From Amylostereum areolatum (Eukaryota; Basidiomycota; Agaricomycetes; Russulales; Stereaceae): a stretch of 64,000 bases of DNA. Position numbers and translations under genes: made by a program. Below the pieces are notes generated by a model, which was given only the letters and a program-made list of their open reading frames with translations, had not been told where the DNA came from and searched no databases. The stretch's first letter is position 1, and every line of letters begins with the position of its first letter. Location: positions 62,001 to 126,000 of the forward strand of contig SAXG01000091.1 in assembly GCA_012932865.1 (NCBI GenBank), given 5' to 3'. Below are positions 43,733-64,000 of the stretch, piece by piece.

Positions 43733-46319
43733 TCAAAACTCCCCGAAATCGCCCATTAAGTCTCCGGGCCACACGAAATCGTCCCCAAGGTCTACCGCCC
43801 CCGCCCCCTGCGCTTGCGCCTCCTCCTGCTCGAATGTGAATCCCGACGATGGATCCAGCGTGCTACCTCCGCTCATGGAGTATCCGAGTCCAGTGAAGGA
43901 TGAGAGACTGAGGGGATCAGAGCCGCTCCGTATACGTCTCTGTGTCGCTCCCGCAAAGCCCGCTCCTCCCGTGTCATTCGCGGTGGTGCTTCCACTCCCT
44001 GCCATACGAAATGCTGTCCATGAGGTCGACGGGGTTGTATGGCTAGACGTGACGACGGACGTGAGCGGCGAGGACGCGTGGGACGTCATTGACATCGGTG
44101 TTGCCGTAAAGGACATCGACCGCGTGGCGGCGGCAGGATTGTCAGGGAATGCGAATGCATTGACCTGGGCCAGCGCGTCTGCTTTTTTCTTCTGGAACTC
44201 CTCCCTACCCTCCAGCACGGCTAATTCGGAACACAAAGGCGCCATGACGCGCATGATGGAGAGCGCCTTGTCTGCGTAAGGTTTGCCTGCGAAACGTTCG
44301 AGCACAGTCACAGCGTCGCCGATATTGTGCCGGAAGGTCTGGTGCGAAGGTTTGAATGGATCATCCAAGATGAGAAGTGCCAGGAAAAGGGCGGAGGATA
44401 GGACATGATATGGAATCATCGAAAGATAGGTCATGACGGAGGCAGAGGATTCCCCTAGGTCTTGCGGCTGTATATGCAGGACCAATGCTATAAGCTTTCC
44501 GGCGGCCTCGACCGCCATGTTCATACTTGTCGTCTTCTCCGGCGAGTCTTGCTGCAGGGGGACGCTGGCAGCGTGATGAAGGGTGAAACGTGCATGGAAG
44601 AAGTGTGTGCGGAGGACAAGGCCTTGGATGGCAAAGCGGCGAATACTGAGAATAGAGGAGGAGAGACTACGGGCGAGGGACTGATCATCGAGGCTGAGCT
44701 CGGAACTGAGGGTGTCGAACCATTCTTGGAGGAGGTTGTCCTTGTCTAAGATTGTACCATAGGGTACAGATTGGAAAGACGTAACGTCGAACATGAACTC
44801 CCCGACAAGGTGATATAGGCGGAGGAGGGCAATCGATCCAACATGCATGCGTCCTTTGTCGCTTGAGTGACCGGTAGAGTAGGGCAGTCGTGTGTTAAAA
44901 TGATGTGATGCGATGCTGAGCGGACGGCCCATGATAAATGCTTGACATCTATCCACGAAATGGGTTGAGAGACTTGCGTCATTGTGTGGACAGATGGACT
45001 TGCCTATCGACGCAGAGGACATTCCACCACGCCCACCGCCTCCTCTCGTTCAGCTCCGGGATGCTGTCATCTTCTGGTTCGTGGTGCAGGCCTAGCGCCA
45101 GCGCAATGGTGACGAGCCTGCCTTTGAGGTACCACAGTTCCTCTGATTCCACTTGGGTAAGCGTCAGATAATGATATTGGGCCAAAAGCAGTTCGACCAT
45201 CTCAAGGCCGTATTGAGTCGAGTCCATCGGCTCGCGTGCTAGGAAATCCAACATCGAGCGGTAGTAGCGGGAGTTCAGCTCGCTACGGGGGTCGGAGAGC
45301 TCGCCCAGGATTTCATGTCCGTCGGGGAGGTGGCAAAGTGCGATGGCCATGAGAACGCATACCATCGCAAGGATGAGGCGAGAGGGATAGTCGCCGGTCT
45401 TGTAACGTGCCCATTGAACTGTGAATGCCGCTTCATGTACGTATCTGCACAAAAGGCTGTTCAGTGTGACCATCGCGGAAGAAAAAGTAGCCCAGGAGAA
45501 GAAGCTCACCTGTAGATCCAATTCGAATGTTCAAAGTAGTAATCCACAAGACTATCGATGACCTTCATCGACGGAAGCTGGTTGACGAGATCACTATCCG
45601 TTGCGTACCGTGCGCCCATCACATCTGGGGGTATGTCCTTGTCCGGCGCGTCCCAATAGTCCGAACCATCGCCTTTCTGTGAAGATTCCTGAACGACGCA
45701 TGTCAACGAACAGTCCACCGGTGTAGGCTAATAAGGAACGTACAATCACGTCGAAGTACGACATCCAGTGGGTAGATCCTCTTCGGAGAGTGTGGCGGGA
45801 CGGCCAACCTGGTCTGGGGTAAGTTGAATGCTTGGAATCGGAAGACACCCCTGGCTGCAATGCCGGTGCCATAGGTTGAGGGTCTGGCGACGAAAGTTCT
45901 TGCTCAAGTCGGGATTCTAGTAGAGCAAGCGATTGCCGAATCTTCTTGAATTCAGAGCTAGCGCTGATAGGTCTGCGGATCCGGATGTGTCAGGATGGTC
46001 AATACAGCGTAGTATGATACGCACGTTATAGTCTCTCTCGATGTGGATGTCTCTGGATCGTCGACAGAACGACAGAGCGACGCGTGTCCTAATAAATGGG
46101 ACGGCACTGTCAGCAACAGAACAAAACGAGCCAAGGTTGTAGACTTGCCCCTTATTATGCACGACGAGCAAGGGTGACCTCTAATGGAACATAAGGACGC
46201 AGCATATACGCAAGAGGGAAAGATCCTCGCCTGTCGCATTTAAGCTTGCTGGTTCTACATGGTTCGCAGTTGCGTATCTTTCGAGACCGTTTGACGGGCT
46301 TTGTATCTTGTGAAGACAT
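43733..46319 (-). CDS. Zn2Cys6 transcription factor with fungal-specific TF domain
   Basis: The minus-strand start at 46319 gives MSSQDTKPVKRSRKIRNCEP; the binuclear zinc cluster begins NCEPCRTSKLKCDR and, after a 50-nt intron, continues GHPCSSCIIRGK. That intron starts with GC, not GT. The middle region holds the fungal-specific TF domain: LPSMKVIDSLVDYYFEHSNW, WARYKTGDYPSRLILAMVC, ELWYLKGRLVTIALALGLHH and RRRWAWWNVLCVDRQ, then CQAFIMGRPLSI. The C-terminus is Ser/Thr-rich with an acidic end GDDFVWPGDLMGDFGEF, probably an activation domain. The position of the sixth zinc Cys was not resolved because of a second intron. Nuclear; target unknown, though the cellobiohydrolase is its neighbour. 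Confidence 0.85.
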
Positions 46320-47560: not shown

Positions 47561-50255
47561 TTACAGACCAATATGAATAAAGGGCACCCATCTCATAAAC
47601 TCGCCCTCCCCGACCTCGTCGCGCAAATGCTTCACCGTGTCGTGCAGCGCATATGCTGTCTTCCACTCGTCACCACTGTGAGCATCGTCCACCAGTCGCG
47701 AATACAACTCCCTCGCGAAGACGAGGGTGTCGCCGTCAGGAATTGGCCATAGTGTCGCGATGACGCTGCGATATCCGGCCATGAACATTTCCGCCGATAG
47801 GAGAGGGATCGTCTCCTCTGGAAGCTCCTCCGCTCCTGCGGTTGCCTGGCAAGAGGAGAGCACTGCAAGGTCCGTGTGGTTGGGCGACCCCTTCATTATG
47901 TCCACGAGTTCCATTCGGCCGTCGTGAAGGATGAAGGCGCTCTTCATGGGGTGATACGCGATGCGACAGGCGAGGTGGATCCAGTCGTGTTCCGTCATGG
48001 CTTTGAGCACGGCGTCCTTGGTTGCCTGCTCTCCGTCCATCCAGCAGAATGCCGGTTTTCCAACACATTCTTCAATGGCGGCAATTTCGTCCATGGTTCC
48101 CGGTGATAAATGTTGACCTGACATTCCAGGCTGGGAGACGACGAGGACGCTGGGGATGGAAGTTTGAGGACGCTTCTTTCCACCTTCGAGTAGGGCAGTG
48201 AGAGTGTATGTGGTCCTCCTTGCTGGTCGTAAAGGCCTGCAGCATGGAGAGGAAGGAAGGCCAGTGGCCCCGTTGCGCACCAAGTGATATGGGGTAGATC
48301 ACCCGTCGTTCTTGACACTAACAGCTATGAATGCCGATCGGGTTGTTAGTAGAGGAATATTGTTAAATAATGGCATGGATGCGTTACCTTGAGCTCGCGA
48401 AGAACCAGCTGCAAGACACTTGACCAAAGCTCTGCCAAAACCTGCGATATCTCTCCGTTGGCGACCGCAACGATCGTGGTATCGCCAGCCCCGACACCTG
48501 ACGTTGAGCTTTTGAGTGACCGGTCGAGCACGTCCCGCCAACGGTCTGCGGTTTCGTGATTAAGAGCGGGAAGGGGGACGTGGATCACTTCATCCGAAGA
48601 ACGGCGAAGGACCAGCGCATCGGAGCGCTGCTGGCCGACATTGACGACGACCACAGGGCCAGAATCAGCGGCACCGCGAAGCTCGGCCAACGTCTTCGGC
48701 CGCAGGAAGCCTTCACAGCCAGGGAGCTTGCGGGCTTTCGCGACCACCCGATCGTATTCCTCCGCAAACCGGCGGTGTCTCTGCGCCTCAATCTCTGGGG
48801 AAACATTGCTAGAATCGCCGCCCTGAACCCCTGCCTTTTCGAGCTCTCGTAAAACGCCTTCCAGATCATCCGCAAGCTTTGCGTCCACAGCATGTAAGGC
48901 TTCGAGAGACGCACGATGTTGCAATGTCTGCCCCCAGACCATGCATTGACCTTGCTCCACCCATTCGAGCGCAGATGCAAGATCGCCATATATGATTGCG
49001 GCAGCGGTGGCCTCGCTCACGGCAACCGTAATGGACGTGAAATGTTCATGGTCGCGGTGAAGCTTGAAATGAGGCCAGACCAGCCGTGGTACGAGTTCCA
49101 TGATCAGTTTGTAGGCATCCAACGGTGAAAGCGCAGGGTCTTCGGAAGCTAATCGTGCCCATATCGTCTTTGGGAGTAAGGTCGATAGCGCGCTGCTGGG
49201 TACGGATGGCATTGTCGAGGTCATCGACCTCTCCTAAACGCCGAAATCGGGTCTGGAAGGAGTTCGCGAGGTTGTTGAGACGACCAGCCTTGTCAGCGTG
49301 CCCCTCGGGAATAAATTCCAAGGCCCGTTGATGAGCAATAATGGCGTTGTCGAGGTCAACGACTTCTCCTAGGAGCTCAAATCGATGCACGAGGGTGTTT
49401 CCAAAGATGTTGAGGAATGCTGACTTGTTTGGATGGTCTTCGGGTGTGTATTCGACAGCTTGCTGCTGAGCGGTGATGGCGCTGTGAAGGTCAATGAGGT
49501 CATGTAAACACAGAAATCGGGTCTGATAAGAGTTTCCAAGGTTGTTGAGGAACACGGTCTTGTCCGGGTGGTCATCACGAGTAAGGTTGACAGCCTGTTG
49601 TTGAGCACTGATTGCACTGTCAAGGGTGGCCTGGTCTCCTAAGTATTGAAATCGAGCCAGAAGGGAGGTTGTTGAGATGCCCGGCTTTGTCCGCATCACC
49701 TTCCGGTGTGAGTTGGATAGCCTGTCGGTGAGCGTTGACCGAGCCTTCTACATCCACGAGGTCTCCTGAGCGTTGGAAGCGTGCCAATAATGCGTTCCCG
49801 AGGCCATTATGACATGCGGCTTGATACGAGTGATCGTCTGGGGTCAGTGTTGCGGCATGCTGGTAGGTATTGATGGCAGCCTGGATGTCTACGAGTTCAC
49901 CCCGCTCCTGAAAGCGTTTCGATAGAAAGGCGCCGATGACATTGAGCGTTTCCAGGTTACAATCGTCAGACGTCAGTGTCGCGATATACGCCAGTCTTGA
50001 CTCGACGGTGTCGTGCAGATCGATGTTGGTACTGCTCTGCGAAAAGATCAGGTTTCGCACAATCGTCAAAGTTGACACTAACCATACCTCAAGGAGGGAT
50101 CGTAGGTCATTAGCCTCGACATGGCTTATCAACGTACGGGAGATGGAGGACCTGACAGGACCCGCGGCGCTCAACTGCTCAGCATGCTCATAAGAAGAAG
50201 ATGCCGACGATGACTGTTGAGGCCCGTCGTCATGAGATACGGGATCGGACAGCAC
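47561..50255 (-). pseudogene. TPR-CHAT protein, broken by frameshifts
   Basis: Three large frames read in order on the minus strand: TPR repeats (GAFLSKRFQERGELVDIQAA, then TPDDHSYQAACHNGLGNALL) to 49620, more TPRs (about 49690-49150), and the CHAT precursor region 49180-48388 (LPGCEGFLRPKTLAELRGAA, SGPVVVVNVGQQRSDALVL). A true intron 48325-48387 leads to the CHAT domain. Frames change near 49660 (deletion inside an LNNLGNS motif), near 49160 and near 48210 (deletion after YDQQGGP). The active-site His motif reads HLACRIAYH, with Arg for His; the Cys motif LSSCQATAG is kept. It has no NACHT domain. At least three lesions suggest a pseudogene, though sequencing errors cannot be excluded from sequence alone. 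Confidence 0.7.
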
Positions 50256-53200
50256 GTCATCCTCTGCCTGGTCGTAGGTGTTAGTGACGGGGCAAACAAT
50301 GATATATTAACGGAAACTGACCATATGTTTTATTAGGCACGACGAGGGATTCGGTAGGGTTGATCCCAGTGAAGAGGGACGTTTAATGAGGCTTAAGACG
50401 TAACTGAGGTCTCGAGACCTTTGTGACCTATACGAGCGATCATCGATCAGGCCGCACATCCTGTACGTTTGACTTATGAAGGAACATACCCCCCGAACGA
50501 GAGTAGTTATACTTGAAGCGATTGAAGGGAAATTTGATAGGGAGAAGGGGATGTGGATTAAGATGCCAAACGACGAGGTAGAACCGCAAGGAGCTGTGAA
50601 AATTTGAGTCGCGCTCGACGGGCATGATGGAGAAAAGCGAATGTTGCACGAACAGCCAACACGTTGAAGTGCAATGTGATAGTTTGCGCAAAGTGGACGA
50701 TACAAGAACGTCGTGGTAAGAGGGAAAAGGCAAGGACGCCTGTCCTTGGAACGTCACGGTATTCACGGACCCTGCGACCCGCGTATAGTAAGCACCTTGC
50801 ACAGGATATCCAGGCGCCTCTCTATTAGTGTTGACACCGTCTTGCCCCAACCAACAACTGACGGGGACGATTGGAGTCCGAGTGGTGCACCATGAGTGTT
50901 ACATCATGTTGGACGAACGTTCATGTTTGAAAATGACGAGTTATACCCATGATGAGGAAGTGGGGCATTGATCTAGAGTAGCGGGGAGAGACGGCGTGGT
51001 CAGCTTTCTCCATCGTAAAGAAAGAAAAAACCTACTCTTCAACGGCTATACCTTTCTCTCTTCTCACACGCCCATATGATTGTCTCCTTCACGCTAAATC
51101 TATTCTCAGCCCGACCCATCTCCAAACTGTAAGCACCAACGTTGTTATAGTTCTCAAAGGTTTTGCAGGTATCAAGAAGACGGCGAGGGGCCGGTCCAGT
51201 GCGGGTCGTCCGTGTCATGGGTATGCCTCATTTTGACGGCGGGCATGTGCGAAAAGGACGACGGCTTGTGAACTGGAAGAGGATTGAGGGGAGATGGGGT
51301 GATGCTTTTAGACGGTATGGGCGGCCGCGTCCTCGTACCCCTAAGGCGGTTGGTGTCGGATGAGAGCGCGAGGCGGACGAGATTTTTGGCCGTCTTAACC
51401 TTGGACTGCGTCGTTCCAAAAGTCGTCTGTGTGACGTCCACCAGAGGTATCATCCTGGTTTGGCTCTCGAGCCGGTCGCGCCATCGATCGGTGTGCGTGG
51501 TAGAGAGATTGAACGGCGTCTCTTGCGCTCCAGTTCAATTATACTCCTGAGATTTGCACCTTCCCTTTCCTCGGGCGCCGATGATGGGACTGACAGTGAC
51601 CGCGAGCTATATACACAAAGGTCAGTATAGCTTCGAGTGGTTTACAATCGTGGCTCACCTGACTCCATTCCCAGTTCTAATGCGGATGCAAAGTACACGG
51701 CGAGAAGACGAAAGGAAGGTGAATCGAGGGCCGGACGAAGGGTATTGTTGTGCGCTTCTCGATACGGCTCCGCCAGCTGGATTATTGAACCGTGGCTATG
51801 AGACGAAGTTATGCGATTGGAGCGAACCTAGACCCTTGAAGAAGTTGACCCCGCCAAAGGGAGAGCAATGGTCAACGTGCATGTGTGACCGAATTGCGTA
51901 TGCCGCGGTCCGAAACGCTCGATATTCTCATTGATGTGGGAAGCTGGCGTGCGGCCGGTGACGCCCGATGTTATACGTTGAAGCAGCCAGTGTTGTTGAG
52001 AAAGTCGGAGAAAGTGTCGGGTGTCTCCGGTGTTGGGGAGGTGGGCGCGTCTGCAAGAAACGTTGGACGCTGGAGGCTGATGGATAGGGCACGGAAGTAT
52101 CGGCATGGCGGGGCTTCAAGTGACAGTGGAGGTTTCCGAATTGTGAACAAAATCCTTCATGTCTTCGGCGCGCCGCGGATGTCGGACGGCGAAGAAAGCT
52201 TCGAGATAGCGCGGTGACGAGTATGCTATGGCAAAAGGTTAGAAAGAGAAACGGACCAGGAAAAAACGCGCACCTCTGCGGCGGACATCGCGTCTTGAAA
52301 AGAGACGGGCTTGAAGTCGTGCGCGAGCCGGTTGAGCGTAGATCGCGCGGACGATCTTCTCCCCAAAACGCATTCTGACATCCAAACCCGGGGTCTGGGA
52401 GGTTTAAGTATGGCTTTGAGAGACTGATCCATGAAGGAGATGGAGTTTCCAAGGCCGGTGAAAGCTGCGAGGGATGAAAGACCGGTCACGAACTCGTGCT
52501 CAGTGGATGGAACGAGATGGTTCCTTCAAGAGGGAGTCCCAGCATGGGTTAGGTGCCTGTGTTGTGTGGAAGGCGGAAGAAGAGAGGCTGGAGCTGGCTG
52601 TAGTTGGCCCGGGGAAGCTTGGTGGGATGGGTGTTGGCACTGTGAGTTTCTGCTGTGCGGAATCGGGGGGGAATTTCATCTTGAGGATAGTTATATGGAC
52701 TTTGTGTCGAAGCGAGACAGGATGCGAGCGAGCCGCCGACGACGGTGGCAGAAAAAGTTGTGTAGGGTGAAAGGGTAAAGCAAAGAGGAATCAGGATCAA
52801 GTCGAACCGACTCCGTGTCTCACAGTCTCAAGTCTGCGAGTGTGAGTCGCATATCCTTGATTCCTTCCTCTGTCCTCGCGCAACTCACCTCGCACGGAAC
52901 ACGAACTACGACGGCCGTCACAAACGACTCTCATAAGTGTGGTCCATAATCCTATAAGCCACCCGGCGATGTCTTCAAGGCAATCCGATACGCCCGCAGC
53001 CTGCAGGTCATCGTATCCGTGCATATCGTCAATACTACTTACAGCCTCGGGTATTCTCCCCCTCGACGATCATGGACGTTCTCTGACCCTCTCGCCGCCT
53101 TGCAAGACCTTCTCCGCAAGCTTTGGGTCGCAGCCCTTCCAGATGCAGCGAAGGCGGCAGGCGAAGACTTTGGACCGTCGAACAAGGAGCGCTGCTCGCG

Positions 53201-53918
53201 ACAGGATTGACACGAAACAACTTTTCAACTTTTATCGGTAGTCTATGTACGCCGCTTCCAAGATAACTCTCTCTTGTTACGACAGGCCTCTTCCTCGCAT
53301 GGTCTTGCTCGCCGGGCCCACCGACCTCTGGCTCTGTTCTTTGAAGACGAGAATTAGCGAGATCGCCTGGGTTTGAGCGTCCCCGTTTGTTCTCCCGGCC
53401 CAGCCCATTTCCCCCTTCCATTGATACTATTTGCCAGCGCAGACTCCCCACCACCCTGCAACGTCGTCAACCTCCCGTACGGCGTTACATGTCAGGCGTC
53501 CCGAAGTCCATCTGGGTGAGGGCTGGCAATGCCGAAGGTGACGGTGGTGGAGAAACATGTGAGACTGCTACCGAATGTGTACGATGGCATCGCGCGAGGT
53601 GAGCGGAATACGTGGTAGCTTGACGAGTGGATCTGACGCGCCGTTTACAGGTTCCCAGAGATTCCGAGGTTCTAGTCCGAGATCAGCACGCGTAGTTATT
53701 CTTCGATCCTCCTGTGTACGATGCCCTGCGAAAATGATATGCATAACGATGGGGTAGAAATGGCAGAGAGCCCTGTCAAGTGGTCCGTATGTTCCGTCGA
53801 TAAGTAAGTAGGTGAAGCGGCTGCAAAGAGACAAATCGAGACCGGATACATCAAGTTAAGGAGGCGAAAAGATGTCTCATCGACCAGAAAAATGTTCATC
53901 GTTCGTGGGCGGACAAGT
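50256..53918. other. Region between two CHAT genes; possible minus-strand gene at 51.2-52.5 kb
   Basis: On the minus strand 52489-52265 reads MTGLSSLAAFTGLGNSISFM, LKPPRPRVWMSECVLGRR, then a GT donor, and 51530-51172 reads RDRLESQTRMIPLVDVTQTT, SKVKTAKNLVRLALSSDTNR. These look like real exons of one unknown protein, but the middle exons were not found. Near 53160-52940 another minus-strand frame (HGYDDLQAAGVSDCLEDIAG) may be coding. No family recognised. Confidence 0.3.
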
Positions 53919-56900
53919 TCAGATTCCAATGTGAAAGAAGGACGCCCACCGCATGACCTCCTTCTCCCCAACTTCGTCGCGCAGACGTTTCACCGCGGTG
54001 TGAAGCGCGTATGCCACCTTCCTTCGATTATTCCCGCCTTCCTCCATTAGCAGCGAGTAAAATTCCTCCACGACCATGGGCGCATCCTTGTCCTCGATCG
54101 GCCACATCGTCGCCACAACGCTTGGATATCCCACCATGAACATTCCTGTTGCAATCTGGACCTCATTCTCCGTAAATCCCGAGCCGCCTGACAGGAACGC
54201 GAGCTCCGTGTGCTTCAATGAGCGGCGCACGATGGAGAGGAGGTCTAATTGACTGTCGTGGAGGATGAACGCGCTTTGCTCGGGGTCTTGAGTATGCTGA
54301 TGCGCTTGACAAGCGAGGTGAATCCAGCTATGGTCCTCCATAGCTGTCAGTACGGAATTCCTCGTCGCTTCCTCTCCGTTCAGATATATACCCGAGTTTC
54401 CTACAACCTTCTTGATGGCTGCGATTTCCGCGATGGTCCCTTGCAACGCGTTTTGACCAGGTATTCTAGGCTGAGATACAGCGAGCATGCTAGGGGTCTG
54501 CAAGTGACTATCGTTGCGCCTTCTAGCGTTGAGCAGTGCGGAGAGCGTCGGCGTGTAGGAAGACACAACAAAGTCGAAAATCTTCGGCCCGGCGTCGTCG
54601 TCGTAGATGCCGGCTGCATGGAGAGGAAGGAAGCCTAAAGCACTCGTCGTACACCAGGTGACGTGAGGGAGATCGCCTGTCGTCGACTTTTCTAACAACT
54701 ACGGACAGTCGACTCCCAATGAGTACGCTTGGAAAACATTACATGTTGTTGAAGGCTTACCTTGAGCTCAAGGAGAATTGGATGGACGATACCCGACCAA
54801 AGCTTCGCGAGGATACCCACCATGGGATTGCCTTCTCCAACAACTTCAGGAAATTGTCGTGATTCACCGGTCCAAAGGCCTGACTGTTGGAGGAATTGAA
54901 GCATCGAGTCTTTCCAGTGCGCCACCTCTGCGTGATTGAGAGTGGGAAGTGGGATATGTAGGACCTCTTCGGAAGACTGGAGTAAGACCAACGCGTCGCA
55001 GCGTTCCGTATCTATGTTCACCACGACCACAGGGCCGGAGTCAGCAACCGCGCGAAGATTTGCCAGCCTCTTCGGTCGTAGAAAATCTTCACATCCAGGA
55101 AGCGTGCGAGCCTTCTCAACTGTCCGCTCGTATTGCTCTGCGAGGTGATGATGTTTCCGTGCCTCCTGCTCCAACGTCGGCCATTCATTCTTCTCCTTGC
55201 TGGCATTGAAGCCTCGACCTGTTCCTGGAGCATCGAGCGCGTTTGAGATGCGTTCTATGTAATCTGCGAGAGCTGGGTCTACAGCACGCAGGTCATCAAG
55301 CGGCGTGCGGAGTTGAAGACACCGGCCCTCCTCCAGCCATTCGAAAGCACATCCCAGATCGCCAACGGCAATTGCGGCGGCAACAGCTTCACTTACCACT
55401 TCGGCCATGGAAGGAAGCTTCTCATCATAGCCCAGCCACACTGGCACTCGTGGAACAAGCGCTAATGCCACTTGGTAGGCCTCTAAAGGCGAGGACGTGG
55501 AATGCGGCAAGGACAGTGATAGGGCCCATTTACAGGCAGCATAGAACCTGTGTGATGGTGGTCCAGATGGACTGTTCGCAGATATCCTGTAAACATCGAC
55601 CGCAGCGTGAGAATCGGCCGTCTCCCCCAATCGCTGGAATCGGAAATGGAGGGAATTCCCCAGGTTATTGAGCTGCCGAGGCTTGTCGGCGTGGCCATCG
55701 GGAGTCAGATCCACGGCCTGGCGTTGCACATGTATGGCACTGTCGAGGTCTGCGACATCTCTTAGTCGCTCGAACCGGGCCTGAAGGGAGAGCCCGAGGT
55801 TGTCGAGGAAGCTAGGCTTGTTGCGATGGCCCTTGGGGGTCAGATTCACGGCCTCGCGGTACACACGAATGGCGCTGTCGATATCTGCCGCATCTCCCGA
55901 TTGCTGGAATCGAGAATGGAAGGAATACCCCAGGTTATTAAGCCGCAGAGGCTTGTCGGCGTGGCCCTTGGGGGTCAGATCCACGGCCGCGCGGTACACA
56001 CGAATGGCGCTGTCGACATCTGCCACCTCTCCCAATCGCTGGAATCGAGAATGGAAGAAATTCCCCAGGTAATTAAGCCGCAGAGGCTTGTCGGCGTGGC
56101 CCTCGGGGGTCAGATCCACGGCCGCGCGGTACACACGAATGGCGCTGTCGATATCTGCCACATCCCCCGATCGCTGGAATCGAGAATGGAAGGAATTCCC
56201 AAGGTTATTGAGCCGCAGAGGCTTGCTGGCGTGGCCATCGGGAGTCAGATCTACGGCCTTGCGCTGGACATGAATGGCACTGTCAATATCCGCCACGTCT
56301 CCGAAGTGCTGGGATCGAGAATGGAAGGAATTCCCGAGGTTGCTGAGGAATCTGGGCTTGTCGACGTCGCCCTCGGGAGTCAGATCCACGGCCGTGTGGT
56401 ACACACGAATGGCGCTGTCAATATCTGACACATACCCTAATCGCTGGAATCGAGAACGAAAGGAATTCCCCAGGTTCTCAAGCCGCCCAGGTTTGTTGGC
56501 GTGGCCCTCGGGAGTCATGTCGACGGCCTCGCAGTGGACACGAATGGCACTGTCAATATCTGCCAGGTCTCCGAAGTGCTGGAATCGAGAATGGAATGAA
56601 TTCCCGAGGTTGCTGAGGAATCTGAGCTTGTCGACGTCGCCCTCGGGAGTCAGATCCACGGCCGCGCGGTACACACGAATGGCGCTGTCAATATCTGCCA
56701 CATACCCCAATCGCTGGAAGCGAGAACGAAAGGAATTCCCCAGGTTATCAAGCCGCCCAGGTTTGTTGGCGTGGCCCTCGGGAGTCATGTCGACGGCCTC
56801 GCAGTGGACACGAATGGCACTGTCAATATCTGCGACATCTCCGAAGTGCTGGAATCGAGAATGGAAGGAATTTCCGAGGTTGCTGAGGAATCTGGGCTTG

Positions 56901-59900
56901 TCGGCGTGGCCTTCGGGAGTCATGTCGACGACCTCGCGGTGCACACGGATAGCACTGTCAATATCTGCCACGTCTCCGAAGTGCTGGAATCGAGAATGGA
57001 AGGAATTCCCGAGGTTGCTGAGGAATCTGAGCTTGTCGACATGGCCCTCAGGAGTCAGATCCACGGCCCCATGGCACACACGAACGGCGCTGTCGATATC
57101 TGCCTCATACCCTAATCGCTGGAATCGAGAACGAAAGGAATTCCCCAGGTTCTCAAGCCGCCCAGGTTTGTTGGCGTGGCCCTCGGGAGTCATGTCGACG
57201 GCCTCGCAGTGGACACGAATGGCACTGTCAATATCTGCCAGGTCTCCGAAGTGCTGGAATCGAGAATGGAATGAATTCCCGAGGTTGCTGAGGAATCTGA
57301 GCTTGTCGACGTCGCCCTCGGGAGTCAGATCCACGGCCGCGCGGTGCACACGAATAGCACTGTCAATATCTGCCACGTCTCCGAAGTGCTGAAATCGAAA
57401 ATGGAGCGAATTCCCGAGGTTATCGAGGAATGCAGGTTTGTCAATGTGGTTTTCGGAAGTGATGTTGATAGCGTGCTGCTGCACACTGATAGCACGTTCA
57501 ATATCAGTCCAATGTCCCTCTTGGTGGAATCGATTTTTGTGGGAAAAAGCAAGGCTTGCGAGCAATATAGGCTTTCTATCGTCATCATCCGGTGCTAGAG
57601 ATGCGCCTAGCGTCTGAACAACGATCCTCCGGTCAAGATCGTCCGTGACATTGCCTGACCGTACAGGCGGATCATGGAGTAAATATGTGTTAAACTTGTG
57701 GACCACGGCGATTATACGTTCCACATAATTGTCGCGTGAGATGAAAAACTGGGATGAGGACCGGCGTTCGTTGGACGCACATGGTTCCTCTGTGAGGAAG
57801 TCGCCGAACGAGGGGTGTATAAAGCGGATCCCGGGGGGGTTGATCAAGAGGACGGATGCAAGCAGTGGGATGGTAGCTTCGATAGTTTCCATTGTGTAAG
57901 TGCCCTTGGAATCCGATTCGAGGATATAGCCCATGATTTCAACTTCCAACGGTACATCCGCAGCAATGACGAAGCCAAGGACATCTCGAAGGAGGGGGAT
58001 GGCACCATGGTAGTTCCCCTCTGAAAATTGAGATAGTACAACGTCATACACATTGTTGAGAGAGTGTATGCCAGGATGTGCACCGAGTACAAGATCAAGA
58101 ATGCCGTTTTTTTTGATCCATGTTACTTCAGCCATGAATTGGAATACGAGCTTGACCCAAAAGTAAAGGCCTCCCGCTTTGGACACGAGGTCATCGAATC
58201 GCGGTTGCACCACTTCGGCGACGCTTGTGGGTGACATGTCCAGCTGTTGAAGAGCATACTTTTTGACCCCCGCAAGTTGAGCGCCACTCTCTGTGTTGAT
58301 GTCCCATCCTGCGTAGGCCCGGAAAGCGTACTTGAGATCCACCTCCGGTCTGCTGGTAATGAACAATTTGAACCATGTTGGTAGCGTCGCATTAGAGTTG
58401 GTAAGACACTTCAATAGCTCTTTGCGGGTTCCTCTTGTTCCACATTCGTCCAACGCGTCGAGGACGACGAATAGTTGGGGTAGGTTATGCAGCACGTCCA
58501 AAGAAGATAGAGGCTTGACAAGGAGTTCCATAAACTGGAATTTGACGGGTGATGTTGCTATGCTACGATGCGTACGCACAGTGTTTGCGATGGGGGTTTT
58601 CAGCAACGGGAAAGTGCAAGCGAGATCGTAAGCAATAGCGGGTATGACATGCTTTGGCATGGTTATGTTTCGCTTGCAGAAGAACTTCGCGCCAAGAACA
58701 GCGCCCCTTGCCGCAGGCTCTTCTCTTTCACCCTGTGACGATGACCCGACCACCGTCGACGCGATGGTCGACTTCCCGCTGCCGGTCACTCCACGGAGCC
58801 AGAATATTCTTCTAACATCCTCCCTGACCATCCAATCGTCGATGTCCCGCAGAACGTGGTCCTGGGTGCCTTTGAGACATTTGATGTCTGGATCGTAGTC
58901 CATACCATGGGCGTGCACGTTAAGGAGCTCCAGCATGTCTGTCGATTATTTAGCGCGATGGAGAGCATGCCAATCAAACAACGCTTACCTTCTTCATCGC
59001 GAATCTTCTGCCGCTCTTGTAGCTTTGTTATGATCCCAAGAACAGTCATGATCGTTTGGAAGTTTTGGATATCTATCCCCAGGCGAAAGCATTCCGTCAA
59101 GCGCTCGAATGCAAGCTTGAAATCGTCGATCTTCTTTCTGTCTTCTTGTCTAACAATTCGACCTGCACGGACAGTGAGATACTGGTTATAAAGATCACAG
59201 GAGATCGTACCAGGGAGCGAACGATCCGCGTAGAGTACGATGAAATCCGAACACTCCTTGATTTTGGTCATCATGAGCCTCATCGCATCTTCAAGCAACT
59301 TGATCTTCTCCTGCTCCCGGATAGCGGCCAAGGGCTCGAGCATCTCACGCATCGTAGATGCCAAGTTCTGGGTATCTTCATCGCGTTCCTTCTGCTTCTG
59401 GACAATCTAGATACGTCCCTCGGTAAGAGGAACAATATGAGAAGTGACGAGACATGGGAGACCTTGCATGCCTGGAGTAGTCCTTCTTGAGCCGCCTTGG
59501 CAATTGGAGACATCTACGATACTGATTTTCAGCCACTGCGAAGTGAAGCTCAAAGCTTAAGGACGTCATATACGCATACCTCAGTGATAAAGGAGACTCC
59601 CTCCAAAACACTTATGACAGTGTCAAGATATTCGAGCGAATTCGCCAAGGCTTCAGAGTGGATATTCTGGATGGCTTCATTCGCATGGTCTACGTCGCGG
59701 CGCGTTGAATCCAACGATGACTGAGAGGTCGTCTCGACTTTGTCGCCTTTCAGATCACGTTCTGAATATAACTGTGATATTAAGAGAATGCAGGGTTGAC
59801 GAACCTGCCGGAATGAAACTAGCCGGTAATGGTTTTGGAGGGAGATCCGAGAAGGAAAACTTGATTTGCATGGATGTCCATCTGGGGTTCAACACCTTGA

Positions 59901-60310
59901 GATTAGGGATGTATTCTGTTTTCACCACGCATGTCAAAATCCAGCCAGCCACGGAAAGATCAGCGCGCACCACACAAGACGTCCCCGTCATTCCGAGAAA
60001 GGTCGAACGGATCCACTAGTGCTTCCGCAATGAAATAATTGAAGAGAGCCCCGCGTTCGTAAACTTGAGCTTTGAAGAACGCATATGGTCTGCAGGCGCT
60101 GCATTTCAGTCGCACGGCACCAGATGAGAGAAACATCGACGAACATATCCGCATTCGCTTGCCAGGTCCGCCAGGAGCCATCAATGCCGGCAAGGTATTC
60201 GGTGCGATATAATTCCTTTTTCTGTCTGGAGACCAGATGAACACGGAGCTTGGTGTCAGAGGACAGTTGAGTAGCGTCCGACAGACGCAATGATATTTTC
60301 GAGACTACAC
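53919..60310 (-). CDS. NACHT-TPR-CHAT protein (NLR-like/STAND), CHAT active site lost
   Basis: Minus strand. A cluster of small exons at about 60310-58940 encodes the N-terminus (LSSDTKLRVHLVSRQKKELY, PYAFFKAQVYERGALFNYF, KVLNPRWTSMQIKFSFSD, then a helical bundle STMREMLEPLAAIREQEKIK). One exon of about 4.2 kb (58938-54771) has the NACHT NTPase with Walker A GVTGSGKST and Walker B LFVVLDALDECG, then 14 tandem 45-residue TPR-like repeats, then the CHAT-associated helical region. After the intron 54699-54770 the CHAT domain runs to the stop at 53919. The usual HLACHG reads HLACQAHQ and the usual LSACQTATG reads LSGGSGFTEN, so both catalytic residues are absent. NLR-like proteins of this layout sense ligands through the repeats and oligomerise by the NACHT. 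The exact start is unresolved. Confidence 0.8.
55600..57495 (-). repeat. 14 tandem TPR-like repeats of 45 residues (135 nt)
   Basis: Each unit follows the pattern AVDLTPEGHADKP, LNNLGNSFHSRFQ, FGDVADIDSAI. Units 2 and 3 are almost identical to units 7 and 8, and unit 6 resembles unit 3, so blocks of several units were duplicated. The outer units (1, 13, 14) are more diverged. The same region is open on the plus strand for 372 codons, which is only a shadow of the repeat. Confidence 0.85.
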
Positions 60311-62656
60311 AGAAGAAGGCAGGATATGAGCAGCGGAGCGACAGTTGTCAATAAGGATGTCGCACCTTTCATTCGGGATGTTTGACTGCGTTCAGATAGC
60401 ACGTTATGGTGAGAATCTAAAGGCCGGATTCGTGTCGGAATACTCACGGTTCCGGCACTGATTGTAGTGGTTTCCGGCGCAAACGGAGTAAAACATTGGT
60501 TTGGCTTGCCTCGCCTGATATAGTTTCACTAGCTGTGCGGATTGTGAGCAAGATATAAGATCTGCATAACTCGACTTGCCTTGCTTCGATAGACTGGGAG
60601 GTTGTGAAGGTTGACGGGAGGGAGGTTCTTCGTGCTGATCTCCCGGACTTTGTTTGGCTAAAGTATTGTGAGTGAGGATCGAGGGGAGTAAAGACGAGCT
60701 TACATCGCGATTGAATGGCCAGCCGTAAGGGCCCTTCGCGCGACGGTTGGTCGCTGTGGCCACCTATATTGGCCATGAGATTTCTTTCGGAAGCTGGGCA
60801 GCATTCTGGCGCACGTGCGATAAAACGATTGTTCGTGTCCATACTTAGCTGCTATCCGAGGACAGGTAAAGTCGTCGCTTGACCTATCGAAAACGAGTCA
60901 GAACGTGAGTGTGATGAATGAAGGGTTCCACTCACAAAGGTGCCGCAGGAATGTAAGACAGAGGTGGACGGTCGTGGTAGAGTGGTTGAGGGGATAGTGG
61001 TGGTCGAGGGAGAACCGTCGTATCAGGGCGTTTGTTGTCGCCTTGCGTATGCTGTGATGATGCACCCCAATTCAGAAGGAATGCAGTAGTTTCATCGCCC
61101 CACTAGGACAGCTTGCGCGCCTAAATAAATAATGAAGCCACGCGGAAACAGTCTTCGTATTGAAGTAAAATGTCCCTGAGGTCATCGGCGTTGAGGACCA
61201 GTGGAGTACGGTATTTGAACGTTCCCGACCCATCCACGCATCGCCGTAACAACAATCGAGGGTCAAAGAGTTATAGAACCACATTTGGTGGGGAAATACA
61301 ACGCTGACGCTGACCATATCATAAACAGAAACACGAGTCTCGTTCGCGAACACGGGGATTCCGCCCAACCTGGGCCCGACACGATCAGCACACGACCCCG
61401 ACCTTGGTAATTATGGATGAAGCCTTCCGTGCCAACCCATTCATAACCATCGCCACCATGCTGGACGCGTTTTCTGTCTCAAAGCACCATACAAAGTTTC
61501 ACCATTGAAAGGGCGGGGGCGTGGTGTTTGGGTGAAGATCGATAGACCAACGCTGAGGACAGGGAGGGGACAACATTTTGCCTGAAAACTGTGATCATGC
61601 TTTTGGAGCGGGTGCGTCGTGAGCGATTGCGAAATCCTGATGGACGACCTAACGTTTGAGGTCAGAAGGGAGGCATTTGAACAAAGAATTCGTGAACGTA
61701 CTCATCGGCACCACGTACACGCGCCGCGCGGGACGTCGAGGAAAATGGAAAGAGATTGGGGACGGCTATAATGTCAAATTTTTGAGTGTTAAGTAGTCCC
61801 AGACTTGTGCGCGAGTCAAAAGAGGTGCGTGCATGAGAGAGATATTAAACTTACCCAGAATCTCGCATAGAGAACTGGATCCAGGTTAAAGACCGTGTCT
61901 TGCGCAATTCTATCGCCCTAGCGCATTAATGCGCAGCCGGAAGGGGTACACAAATGCAAGGATGTTTTCTGAAAACGGGTGGAAAGGGAAAGACGACGGG
62001 ATGGGCGTGTGCTGAGCCAGGAAGAAGAAGGGGCGTCCACGGAAAGGCTTCGTCCACCAGGTCGACGGACGAGGTAAGACATTGTGCTATCCGTTTACTT
62101 CTAAACTCAAGGATAGCTAGTGTCGACACACAGTTCTAGGATTTCAGGATAATGGGGAATCGCACGCACCTCGCGTCCCGTTCGCGTCAGGAACGGCATT
62201 CCCGTCGATCTCGACGCAACAGCTTCCATCAAAACCTTGAACGAGCGATGATTGAGATTAAACTGAGAGCCTCCGTGGCAAGGCTTTGTGTGACAGTACA
62301 GGAGGGTGAGGTGAACGTACTATGTGAACGTCGAACGACAAAGTTGGGTTAGAGATCCGAACCATCGGTGCTCCCGGCACTTTCCGGCAGCGTCTTGGAT
62401 TTGCTCTCTGACTCAGCCTGTGACTGCGACCAGCTCTCAAGATCTCACCGGTGAGCGCAAGGTGAGCGGTTGTGGGGTTATAGGTGACGCGGCTGTTGTG
62501 CGAACTCTCGAGTTACCCGTGAGTGTACTCTACTTCGTTATCCATTTCTTCGAAGTTAGCATATATAGTCCAAGAATCCGATGTAATACAGGCGTACGAA
62601 GAGATAACTGGGTCGTATTCAAGCACCTCATTTGCGAATGAAAAGCATTCAGATAT
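60311..62656. other. Long region with no convincing gene; possible N-terminal exons of the NLR-like gene
   Basis: On the minus strand 60842-60700 reads MDTNNRFIARAPECCPASER and, after an intron, a Ser/Pro/Gln-rich stretch to about 60450; these may be disordered 5' exons of the NACHT gene. From 60850 to 62650 I saw no coding signal beyond short frames. Confidence 0.3.
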
Positions 62657-64000
62657 TCAGACCCCAATGTGGATGAAGGGTACCCATCTGATGAATTCAG
62701 TCTCCCCAACCTCGTCGCGTAGACGCTTCACAGCGTCGTGCAGCGCATACGCCACCTTCCTTTCGTCACCATGGCCGGTTTCCTTCATCAGCCCCGAGTA
62801 TAGTATTTTCACCACAACAGGCGCATCCCTGTCCCGAATCGACCACATCGTGGCGATAACGCTTCGATATCCCGCCATGAGCATCCCGGCTGCGAGATGA
62901 ACTGCCTCTTCTGAAAGATCCTCCGCGCCCGTGGCGGTTTGGCAAGCGGAAAGTACCGCAAGCTCCGTGTGCTTGAATGACTTCTTCATGATGTCTAGGA
63001 GCTCCAATCTGCCGTCATGAAGAATGAAGGCGCTTTTCGCGGGGTCGCCGACATGCTGCTCGGCGTGGCAAGCGAAATGGATCCAGCTATGCTCCCCCAT
63101 GGCCTCGAGCACGACGCTCTTGGTGGCCTCTTCTCCGTTCAGCCGGTGGAAGCCCATGTTTCCGATGCAACCTTGAACTTCTGCGACCTCGATTACGGTC
63201 CCTGGTAAAGAACTTTGACCTGGCGTTGCGGGTTGGGATACAGCAAGGATGCTGGGAGTGGAGTCGAGGTAACCATGCTGTCTGGCCTCGAGCAAGGCTG
63301 TAAGGGTGGGCGTATACGAGGAGACGACGTGGTTGAATATCTTCGGTCCTCCTTGACCATCGTAAACACCTGCGGCATGAAGGGGAAGGAATGCAAGCGG
63401 CCCCGTTGTGCACCAGGTGACGTGGGGAAGCCGATCGTCTGGCCCTTGTCCTAACAACTACACGCAGTTGACCCTCTAAGTAAGAAGACGTTGAACGGGA
63501 AGGGATAAACCGCTACCTTGAGCTCGAGAAGAACAGGATGCACAACGTTGGACCAGAGTTTCGCCAAGATTGGCGACATCTTGTCGTTGTCGGCCATTCG
63601 ACGTCGCGAACCACGAGCAAGAACGCCAGCCCTTCGGAGCGACTGGAAAATTAAACCTTGCCAGTGAGCTGCATCTTTGCGGGTAAGGGAGCGTAAGGGA
63701 ACATGGACGACAGCGCCAGATGATCGTTGAAGGATCAAGGCATCGCAGCGTTGCTTGTCGACGTTGACAATTACCACGGGGCCAGAATTGGCGGCCTTGC
63801 AAAGGTCAACGAGTCGTTTTGGTTGCAGGAAGCCTTCGAGTCCGGGGAGCGCGCGCGCTTGCTGAACAAGGTCCTCGTATTTCTTCGCCAGACGACGTCG
63901 ACGTTGTGCATCGTTTTCCAACGATATTTCTTTGTCACTGCCTGCTTCGCCAGAATCGGGCGCGGAGACAATCCCTCCATTTTCAAGCCCCCGCGAAACG
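62657..64000 (-). CDS. CHAT-domain protein with intact active site, 5' part outside the window
   Basis: Minus strand, stop at 62657, running off the window edge. The 5' visible exon (64000-63517) holds the CHAT-associated region: RRRRLAKKYEDLVQQARALP, LEGFLQPKRLVDLCKAANS, SGPVVIVNVDKQRCDALIL. Intron 63458-63516, then the CHAT domain: PHVTWCTTGPLAFLPLHAAG, SSYTPTLTALLEARQ, the His motif HFACHAEQ (near 63068), and the Cys motif LSACQTATG (near 62945), ending RDEVGETEFIRWVPFIHIGV. Both catalytic residues are kept, unlike the other two copies. CHAT domains are caspase-like Cys proteases. The part upstream of the window should show whether it also has TPRs and a NACHT. Confidence 0.85.

What the first reader, a model, noticed from the sequence alone, without database searches (positions are those of the whole stretch)
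47561..64000. Cluster of CHAT proteins with graded loss of the active site
Three CHAT genes on one strand differ at the His/Cys pair: copy at 62.7 kb has both (HFACHAEQ and LSACQTATG), the copy at 47.6 kb has Arg for His but keeps Cys, and the large NACHT-TPR-CHAT protein at 54 kb has lost both (HLACQAHQ and LSGGSGFTEN). CHAT domains are caspase-like proteases. A sensor with a dead protease beside an active relative recalls paired receptor/executor arrangements in which the pseudoprotease regulates the active one. This is a candidate fungal immune or allorecognition module.
Basis: partly seen in the sequence, partly recalled or inferred. Interest (0 to 1): 0.75.

Follow-up and report, generated by a model that had tools for sequence, protein, structure and literature searches.

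The report
Fungal NLR with dead CHAT protease
A wood-rot fungus carries an intact immune-receptor-like gene that ends in a caspase-like protease domain whose two catalytic residues are missing, beside related genes whose protease keeps them; the second 'half-dead' neighbour is just a broken gene.

Summary
The motif observation is right; the 'graded' reading is not. Gene C (62.7 kb) keeps His and Cys. Gene A (47.6 kb) is a pseudogene: frame breaks common to two haplotype contigs, one inside its CHAT exon; its His-to-Arg change lies on a branch separate from gene B. Gene B (54 kb) is real: an open five-exon frame of at least 1868 aa (N-terminal region, NACHT, TPR array, CHAT), open in both haplotypes, with both catalytic residues gone in both and in the matching Amylostereum chailletii protein. 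Of 34 CHAT columns invariant in 29 active copies of this genome, B keeps 30; three of the four lost lie in the catalytic motifs. The domain still models as CHAT/separase-like. B's alleles differ most over its receptor half and upstream region and carry 14 versus 17 TPR units, as in fungal allorecognition NLRs. Best reading: a sensor NLR that gained a TPR-CHAT tail and keeps it as a non-catalytic module. A pair with gene C specifically is not supported. Constraint on B's CHAT is relaxed, so a decaying relic is not excluded. Dead CHATs also turned up in Ceratobasidium and Serendipita proteins.

The parts
53919..59761 (-). Gene B: NLR-type gene, five exons found (59761-59580, 59513-59463, 59406-58989, 58938-54761, 54698-53919), at least 1868 aa; the first exon with the start codon was not found
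   Evidence: open frame across four introns of 50-66 bases that begin GT and end AG; allele on C150 open too, 2001 aa
58989..59761 (-). Gene B, N-terminal region (216 aa over three exons)
   Evidence: similar to the region before NACHT in some other basidiomycete proteins, best 2.6e-13; low-confidence model is all helical; no Pfam match above cut-off
58349..58846 (-). Gene B, NACHT-type domain (PF24883 NPHP3_N) with P-loop GVTGSGKST and VVLDALDE
   Evidence: Pfam E 5e-21; motifs read; NACHT PF05729 only below cut-off
55538..57427 (-). Gene B, 14 TPR-type units of 45 aa (17 on the C150 haplotype)
   Evidence: unit census and codon table
53919..54698 (-). Gene B, last exon: CHAT domain without catalytic His (Gln, 54308-54306) and without the Cys motif (junction 54189/54188)
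   Evidence: PF12770 E 1.8e-28; alignment; model and fold match
47561..50306 (-). Gene A: TPR-CHAT pseudogene, CHAT with Arg for His
   Evidence: frame fragments on C174 and C150; break inside the CHAT exon at about 48219
62657..64000 (-). Gene C (3' part in the window, runs on to about 67.5 kb): TPR-CHAT with His and Cys
   Evidence: open as 1335 + 266 aa on C150, frame split by a one-base length difference on C174 outside the window
56000..62500 (.). Region of raised divergence between the two haplotype contigs (gene B receptor half and upstream region)
   Evidence: 500-base bins

Best explanation
Gene B is a working, polymorphic NLR-type receptor whose C-terminal TPR-CHAT part derives from the local TPR-CHAT family. 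SHOWN by sequence: open frame in both haplotypes, NACHT, internally near-identical TPR units that differ between haplotypes, CHAT fold predicted without the His/Cys dyad, same state in an A. chailletii protein. INFERRED: the TPR array (perhaps with the CHAT surface) senses a ligand; NACHT drives oligomerisation; the output comes from the N-terminal region and not from proteolysis; the CHAT domain stays as a non-catalytic module, that is a bait, brake or structural transducer modelled on the active CHAT proteases of the same genome. Which of these three roles it has is open.
For: Open five-exon frame and open allele. Allelic pN/pS of 0.40 in the N-terminal region, 0.38 in NACHT plus linker and 0.34 in the last TPR units plus linker, i.e. 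purifying selection. Catalytic loss is focused: 30 of 34 columns invariant in 29 active copies are kept, and 3 of the 4 lost lie in the His or Cys motif. The exon shows no stop and no frameshift although its branch dS is about 0.2-0.3; a simulation of full neutrality at d 0.12 gives 0.083 for no stop, and 0.00016 jointly with an assumed indel rate. The model matches SAVED-CHAT, Csx29 TPR-CHAT and separase. P0122 of A. chailletii has the same loss with CHAT 99.2-99.6% alike. TPR units 14 versus 17, a 270-base double unit repeated without change in C150, and most amino-acid variety at unit positions 28-30. A Cys mutant of bacterial TPR-CHAT has no protease activity (PMC9729208, passages).
Against: B's CHAT is the least constrained part: branch dN/dS 0.60 (0.28-1.57) or 0.44 (0.19-1.36), against 0.07-0.16 in sisters, and the intervals include 1. 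At the 90% level it keeps 55 of 65 columns, fewer than all but 2 of 29 active copies. The CHAT exon differs by one base between haplotypes, so selection after the loss cannot be measured there. The two Amylostereum sources are so alike that P0122 adds little independent time. No expression data. The N-terminal region is unidentified.
Confidence: 0.45

Rival explanations
1. Relic: the TPR-CHAT tail came along with the fusion, the TPR units became the sensor, and the CHAT domain is now useless and slowly decaying (or only a passive cap of the TPR stack).
For: CHAT-specific relaxation: CHAT dN 0.128 against 0.044-0.069 in five sisters, while the linker before it has dN/dS 0.22 against 0.28-0.36 in those sisters. 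10 of 65 columns at the 90% level lost.
Against: No stop or frameshift in 780 bases in either haplotype; the strictly invariant columns outside the catalytic motifs are kept but for one L to I; a neutral simulation makes full neutrality since the loss unlikely if the loss is old, but stops alone give only P 0.083 and the indel rate was assumed.
Confidence: 0.27
2. Pair: B's dead CHAT binds the CHAT of a neighbouring active TPR-CHAT protease (C or D) and holds it off or recruits it, as the first reader proposes (cFLIP/caspase-8 logic, recalled).
For: Tandem cluster D-C-B-A on both haplotypes. A Serendipita protein carries one CHAT without and one with the His in one chain, so dead/active combinations occur (P0008).
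Against: Tandem duplication alone explains the neighbours: many CHAT stretches elsewhere in the genome keep both residues (31 of 37 aligned stretches, allelic copies included). B's CHAT groups with copies on C117 and C110, not with C or D. No listed A. chailletii protein closer than 58% to gene C. On the window's own haplotype the frames of C and D are interrupted, though open on C150.
Confidence: 0.15
3. Gene B is itself a pseudogene or an assembly artefact.
For: The contig has a likely indel error or mutation in gene C and several near its end in gene D; near-identical repeats are hard to assemble. No expression data.
Against: Open frame with four GT-AG introns on two contigs that differ by several percent; pN/pS about 0.4; independent sequence of A. 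chailletii with the same CHAT exon.
Confidence: 0.05

Closest known systems
Fungal NLRs with high-internal-conservation repeats, e.g. het-d/het-e of Podospora anserina (PMC12222747, abstract and outline only)
   Same: NACHT-type core, C-terminal repeats nearly identical inside an allele, different repeat arrays between haplotypes, hypervariable unit positions
   Different: TPR instead of WD40, different N-terminal region, and a CHAT domain behind the repeats; no incompatibility phenotype known
TPR-CHAT proteases (bacterial Csx29/Craspase; fungal TPR-CHAT next to gasdermin; PMC9729208, PMC12881547, PMC10197012, passages)
   Same: TPR-CHAT order, CHAT fold predicted
   Different: catalytic dyad absent, NACHT in front, no gasdermin found with PF04598 (a weak test)
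Fungal NLRs that carry CHAT as effector (PMC10197012 and PMC12881547, passages)
   Same: NLR and CHAT in one chain
   Different: there the protease is described as N-terminal signalling module and active; here CHAT is C-terminal, behind the sensor repeats, and without the dyad
NLRs with C-terminal integrated domains, candidate integrated decoys: PKinase from CHK-2 in Sordariales NLRs (PMC12258605, passages and section 14)
   Same: extra C-terminal enzyme-like domain derived from another gene family, behind a complete tripartite NLR
   Different: here the domain is a CHAT that lost its catalytic residues; the decoy role is untested in both
Ceratobasidium sp. AG-I P0276 and P0286 (TPR-CHAT, S/S and Y/S) and Serendipita vermifera P0008 (one of two CHATs Q/C)
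   Same: CHAT without one or both catalytic residues in an otherwise full-length prediction
   Different: no NACHT domain in these predictions; independent losses

Membership tests
NLR (STAND receptor) | NACHT or NB-ARC domain with Walker motifs | tested here: met
   PF24883 E 5e-21 above cut-off, P-loop and VVLDALDE read in the protein; PF05729 only E 0.0065, below cut-off
NLR (STAND receptor) | C-terminal repeat sensor | tested here: met
   14/17 TPR-type units of 45 aa; several TPR profiles
NLR (STAND receptor) | identified N-terminal effector domain | tested here: inconclusive
   shared with some basidiomycete proteins upstream of NACHT but no Pfam family, model pTM 0.31, no fold match at E below 0.001
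CHAT peptidase | CHAT fold | tested here: met
   PF12770 E 1.8e-28; model (mean pLDDT 67, pTM 0.71, first 66 residues poor) matches SAVED-CHAT 8.5e-08 and Csx29 9.0e-08; no sequence match in the PDB
CHAT peptidase | His/Cys catalytic dyad | tested here: not met
   Q and gap in both haplotypes and in P0122
Gasdermin-CHAT two-gene unit | gasdermin-like gene close by | tested here: inconclusive
   PF04598 gave 0 matches at E up to 10 in the whole genome, but the profile is of animal type and had no fungal positive control
High-internal-conservation allorecognition NLR | near-identical repeats with hypervariable positions and divergent alleles | tested here: met
High-internal-conservation allorecognition NLR | incompatibility reaction | not testable with these tools
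   needs crosses or transformants
Paired NLRs of plant type | head-to-head partner NLR | tested here: not met
   genes D, C, B, A lie on one strand; C has no match to a NACHT in the genome search

The most novel reading that the evidence does not exclude
Gene B is a fungal NLR with an integrated decoy made from the fungus's own cell-death protease: a copy of a TPR-CHAT protease was fused behind a NACHT, disarmed at its dyad and kept as bait, so that a parasite factor (virus, bacterium or rival fungus) that attacks CHAT proteases is sensed through its binding to the dead copy. Dead CHATs in Ceratobasidium and Serendipita would be free-standing or in-chain versions of the same trick.
Probability: 0.18. 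Interest if true: 0.85.

Novelty: new variant of a known kind. Interest (0 to 1): 0.5.

Why it matters
CHAT proteases are proposed executors of fungal and bacterial regulated cell death, and NLRs its sensors. A sensor that carries a disarmed copy of such a protease behind its repeats would show that fungi, like plants, build decoys or brakes out of their own defence machinery, and it makes the question 'what do basidiomycete NLRs sense' testable with a defined bait. Even if the tail is a relic, the locus shows a receptor whose sensor half diverges between the two nuclei of one mycelium while its dead tail does not.

Tried and rejected
Rejected: a graded series. Gene A's frame is in pieces on C174 and C150, its CHAT exon has lost about 31 bases relative to what the A. 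chailletii protein P0010 encodes there (inferred from that protein), and its branch is long (0.52 changes per column). P0010 has the same Arg, so that change is older than the deletion; but P0010 is a doubtful gene model (fused with the neighbouring Fungal_trans gene, and one TPR stretch apparently skipped), so I cannot say whether a working A gene exists there. The two further frame breaks in the TPR part of gene A were read from open frames, not proved against introns. The third contig, C157, is 99.97% identical to C150 over 9.85 kb with three gaps, and its CHAT stretch is identical; its open frames were not listed.

Rejected: neighbourhood of an active CHAT as evidence for a pair (41 CHAT matches in the genome). 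Led nowhere: gasdermin profile, Pfam on the N-terminal region, PDB by sequence, model and fold search of the N-terminal exon. The first allele count for the TPR end (1.03) was out of register because of a two-codon gap and was replaced. The NACHT census rests on PF24883 alone; NB-ARC and other NACHT profiles were not run over the genome.

Full report
WHERE IT IS. The window is G000:C174:62001-126000 of a 57.1-Mb, 182-contig genome. The nearest named source by protein is Amylostereum chailletii (Russulales): single CHAT stretches up to 99.6% identical, longer proteins about 88-93%. The published A. areolatum assembly is also about 57.5 Mb (PMC7227769, passages), but I did not establish the species. 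Contig C150 carries the same block in the opposite sense and is taken as the other haplotype.

THE CLUSTER. Four CHAT genes lie head to tail on one strand: D (C174:132.4 kb, outside the window), C, B and A. On C150, D is open as 799 + 265 aa and C as 1335 + 266 aa. On C174 the frame of C is split by a one-base length difference beyond the window end, and D is broken in several places near the contig end; mutation or sequencing error cannot be told apart. So even the 'active' gene C is interrupted on the window's own haplotype, though intact copies exist. C and D have no NACHT.

GENE A IS A PSEUDOGENE. The frame falls into pieces of 228, 233, 295 and 245 aa on both C174 and C150. Inside the CHAT exon the frame changes at about 48219 with no room for an intron; compared with A. 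chailletii P0010 about 31 bases are missing. It keeps 21 of 34 invariant CHAT columns.

GENE B IS AN NLR-TYPE GENE. Five exons with four GT-AG introns of 50-66 bases give an open frame of 1868 aa on C174 and 2001 aa on C150; the start codon was not found. Domains: an N-terminal region shared with some basidiomycete proteins upstream of NACHT (best 2.6e-13), NACHT-type PF24883 (E 5e-21), 14 or 17 TPR-type units, a linker and CHAT (E 1.8e-28). Comparing the 57 PF24883 matches with the 41 CHAT matches, gene B (two haplotypes) is the only case of the two in one gene; elsewhere they lie about 100 kb or more apart or on different contigs. Other NACHT or NB-ARC profiles were not run. Gene B's NACHT has no close relative in the genome (next best 27-32% identity).

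THE DEAD CHAT. His is Gln and a six-residue stretch with the Cys is missing, in both haplotypes. The matching A. chailletii protein P0122 (842 aa, model truncated at the N-terminus) has the same state, with CHAT 99.2-99.6% identical. Loss of the Cys abolishes activity in the bacterial TPR-CHAT (PMC9729208, passages), so activity here is very unlikely. Of 34 columns invariant in 29 active own copies B keeps 30; lost are the His, the Cys, an Ala in the missing stretch, and one L to I. At the 90% level it keeps 55 of 65, fewer than all but 2 of the 29 active copies. The AlphaFold2 model (pTM 0.71, first 66 residues poor) matches SAVED-CHAT, Csx29 and separase.

TREE AND RATES. In a tree without the motif columns, B sits inside a group of 16 rows (support 100/97) with copies from C117 and C110, and A on a separate stem (100/100), so the two losses are independent. 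By three-point distances B's CHAT branch has dN/dS 0.60 (0.28-1.57) against 0.07-0.16 in seven sisters; with five sisters for which the linker could also be compared, 0.44 (0.19-1.36) against 0.10-0.13, while the linker exon has 0.22 in B and 0.28-0.36 in the sisters. Constraint is thus relaxed in the CHAT exon only. A simulation of full neutrality at d 0.12 leaves no stop in 8.3% of runs, and 0.016% jointly with an assumed one indel per ten substitutions; this argues for some retained constraint but leans on an assumption.

POLYMORPHISM. In 500-base bins of the C174/C150 alignment, 44.0-56.0 kb is 99.2-100% identical and 63.0-69.0 kb 98.6-100%; 56.0-62.0 kb (gene B receptor half and upstream region) is 90.2-98.2%, and 62.0-62.5 kb hardly aligns (61.7%, 1271 gap columns). 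A second dip (93-95%) lies at 69.0-70.5 kb, outside the window. Within gene B, pN/pS is 0.40 (N-terminal region), 0.38 (NACHT and linker) and 0.34 (last TPR units and linker); the CHAT exon has one difference in 780 bases. In C150 a 270-base double unit is repeated without change; C174 has 12 different units among 13 compared; amino-acid variety peaks at unit positions 28-30. This is the pattern described for HET-D/HET-E (PMC12222747, abstract).

HOW COMMON ARE DEAD CHATS. Of 222 CHAT domains in 218 proteins from my three searches, 215 keep both residues. Exceptions: P0122 and P0010 (Amylostereum), P0276 and P0286 (Ceratobasidium sp. AG-I, S/S and Y/S, 78% identical to each other), the first of two CHATs of P0008 (Serendipita, Q/C), P0265 (Rhizoctonia, H/A, partial) and P0225 (domain cut before the Cys). 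The listed hits are the best 120 of 836 and of 175 and all 104 of the NACHT search, so this is no unbiased sample. The Ceratobasidium pair suggests that a dead CHAT can be kept through a duplication.

PAIR OR NOT. The B-C neighbourhood is therefore not shown to be conserved. A gasdermin profile found nothing, with weak sensitivity.

WHAT IS KNOWN. Reviews describe NLRs with CHAT as effector and TPR-CHAT control of gasdermin (PMC10197012, PMC12881547, passages), and C-terminal kinase domains as candidate decoys in Sordariales NLRs (PMC12258605, section 14). In the listings of eight literature searches I saw no paper on a CHAT pseudoprotease in a fungal NLR; only open-licence papers are held there, and listings were cut at 10 to 15 rows.

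Noticed in passing
L017-L019, L023, L025-L027, L036, L037 (C117:1458-1653 kb): A second, larger cluster of TPR-CHAT copies on both strands, with at least one frame-broken copy (L037).
   Followed up: partly
public proteins P0276, P0286: Two Ceratobasidium sp. AG-I TPR-CHAT proteins, 78% identical, both without the catalytic Cys and His (S/S and Y/S).
   Followed up: partly
public protein P0008: Serendipita vermifera protein of 2453 aa with two TPR-CHAT halves; the first CHAT has Gln for His, the second keeps both residues.
   Followed up: no
window 62000-62500: The two haplotypes hardly align here (61.7% identity, 1271 gap columns): a large insertion or replacement between genes B and C.
   Followed up: no
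C174:131000-132500 (69.0-70.5 kb in window numbering, outside the window): Second dip of haplotype identity (93-95%) between genes C and D.
   Followed up: no
window 43733-45989: Open frames 98% identical over 407 aa to the end of A. chailletii P0010, which bears the Fungal_trans domain PF04082: a likely transcription-factor gene fused to gene A in that annotation.
   Followed up: partly
   Followed up: no
C102:422310-423086 (L028): CHAT stretch with two in-frame stops, perhaps a short intron or a decayed copy.
   Followed up: no
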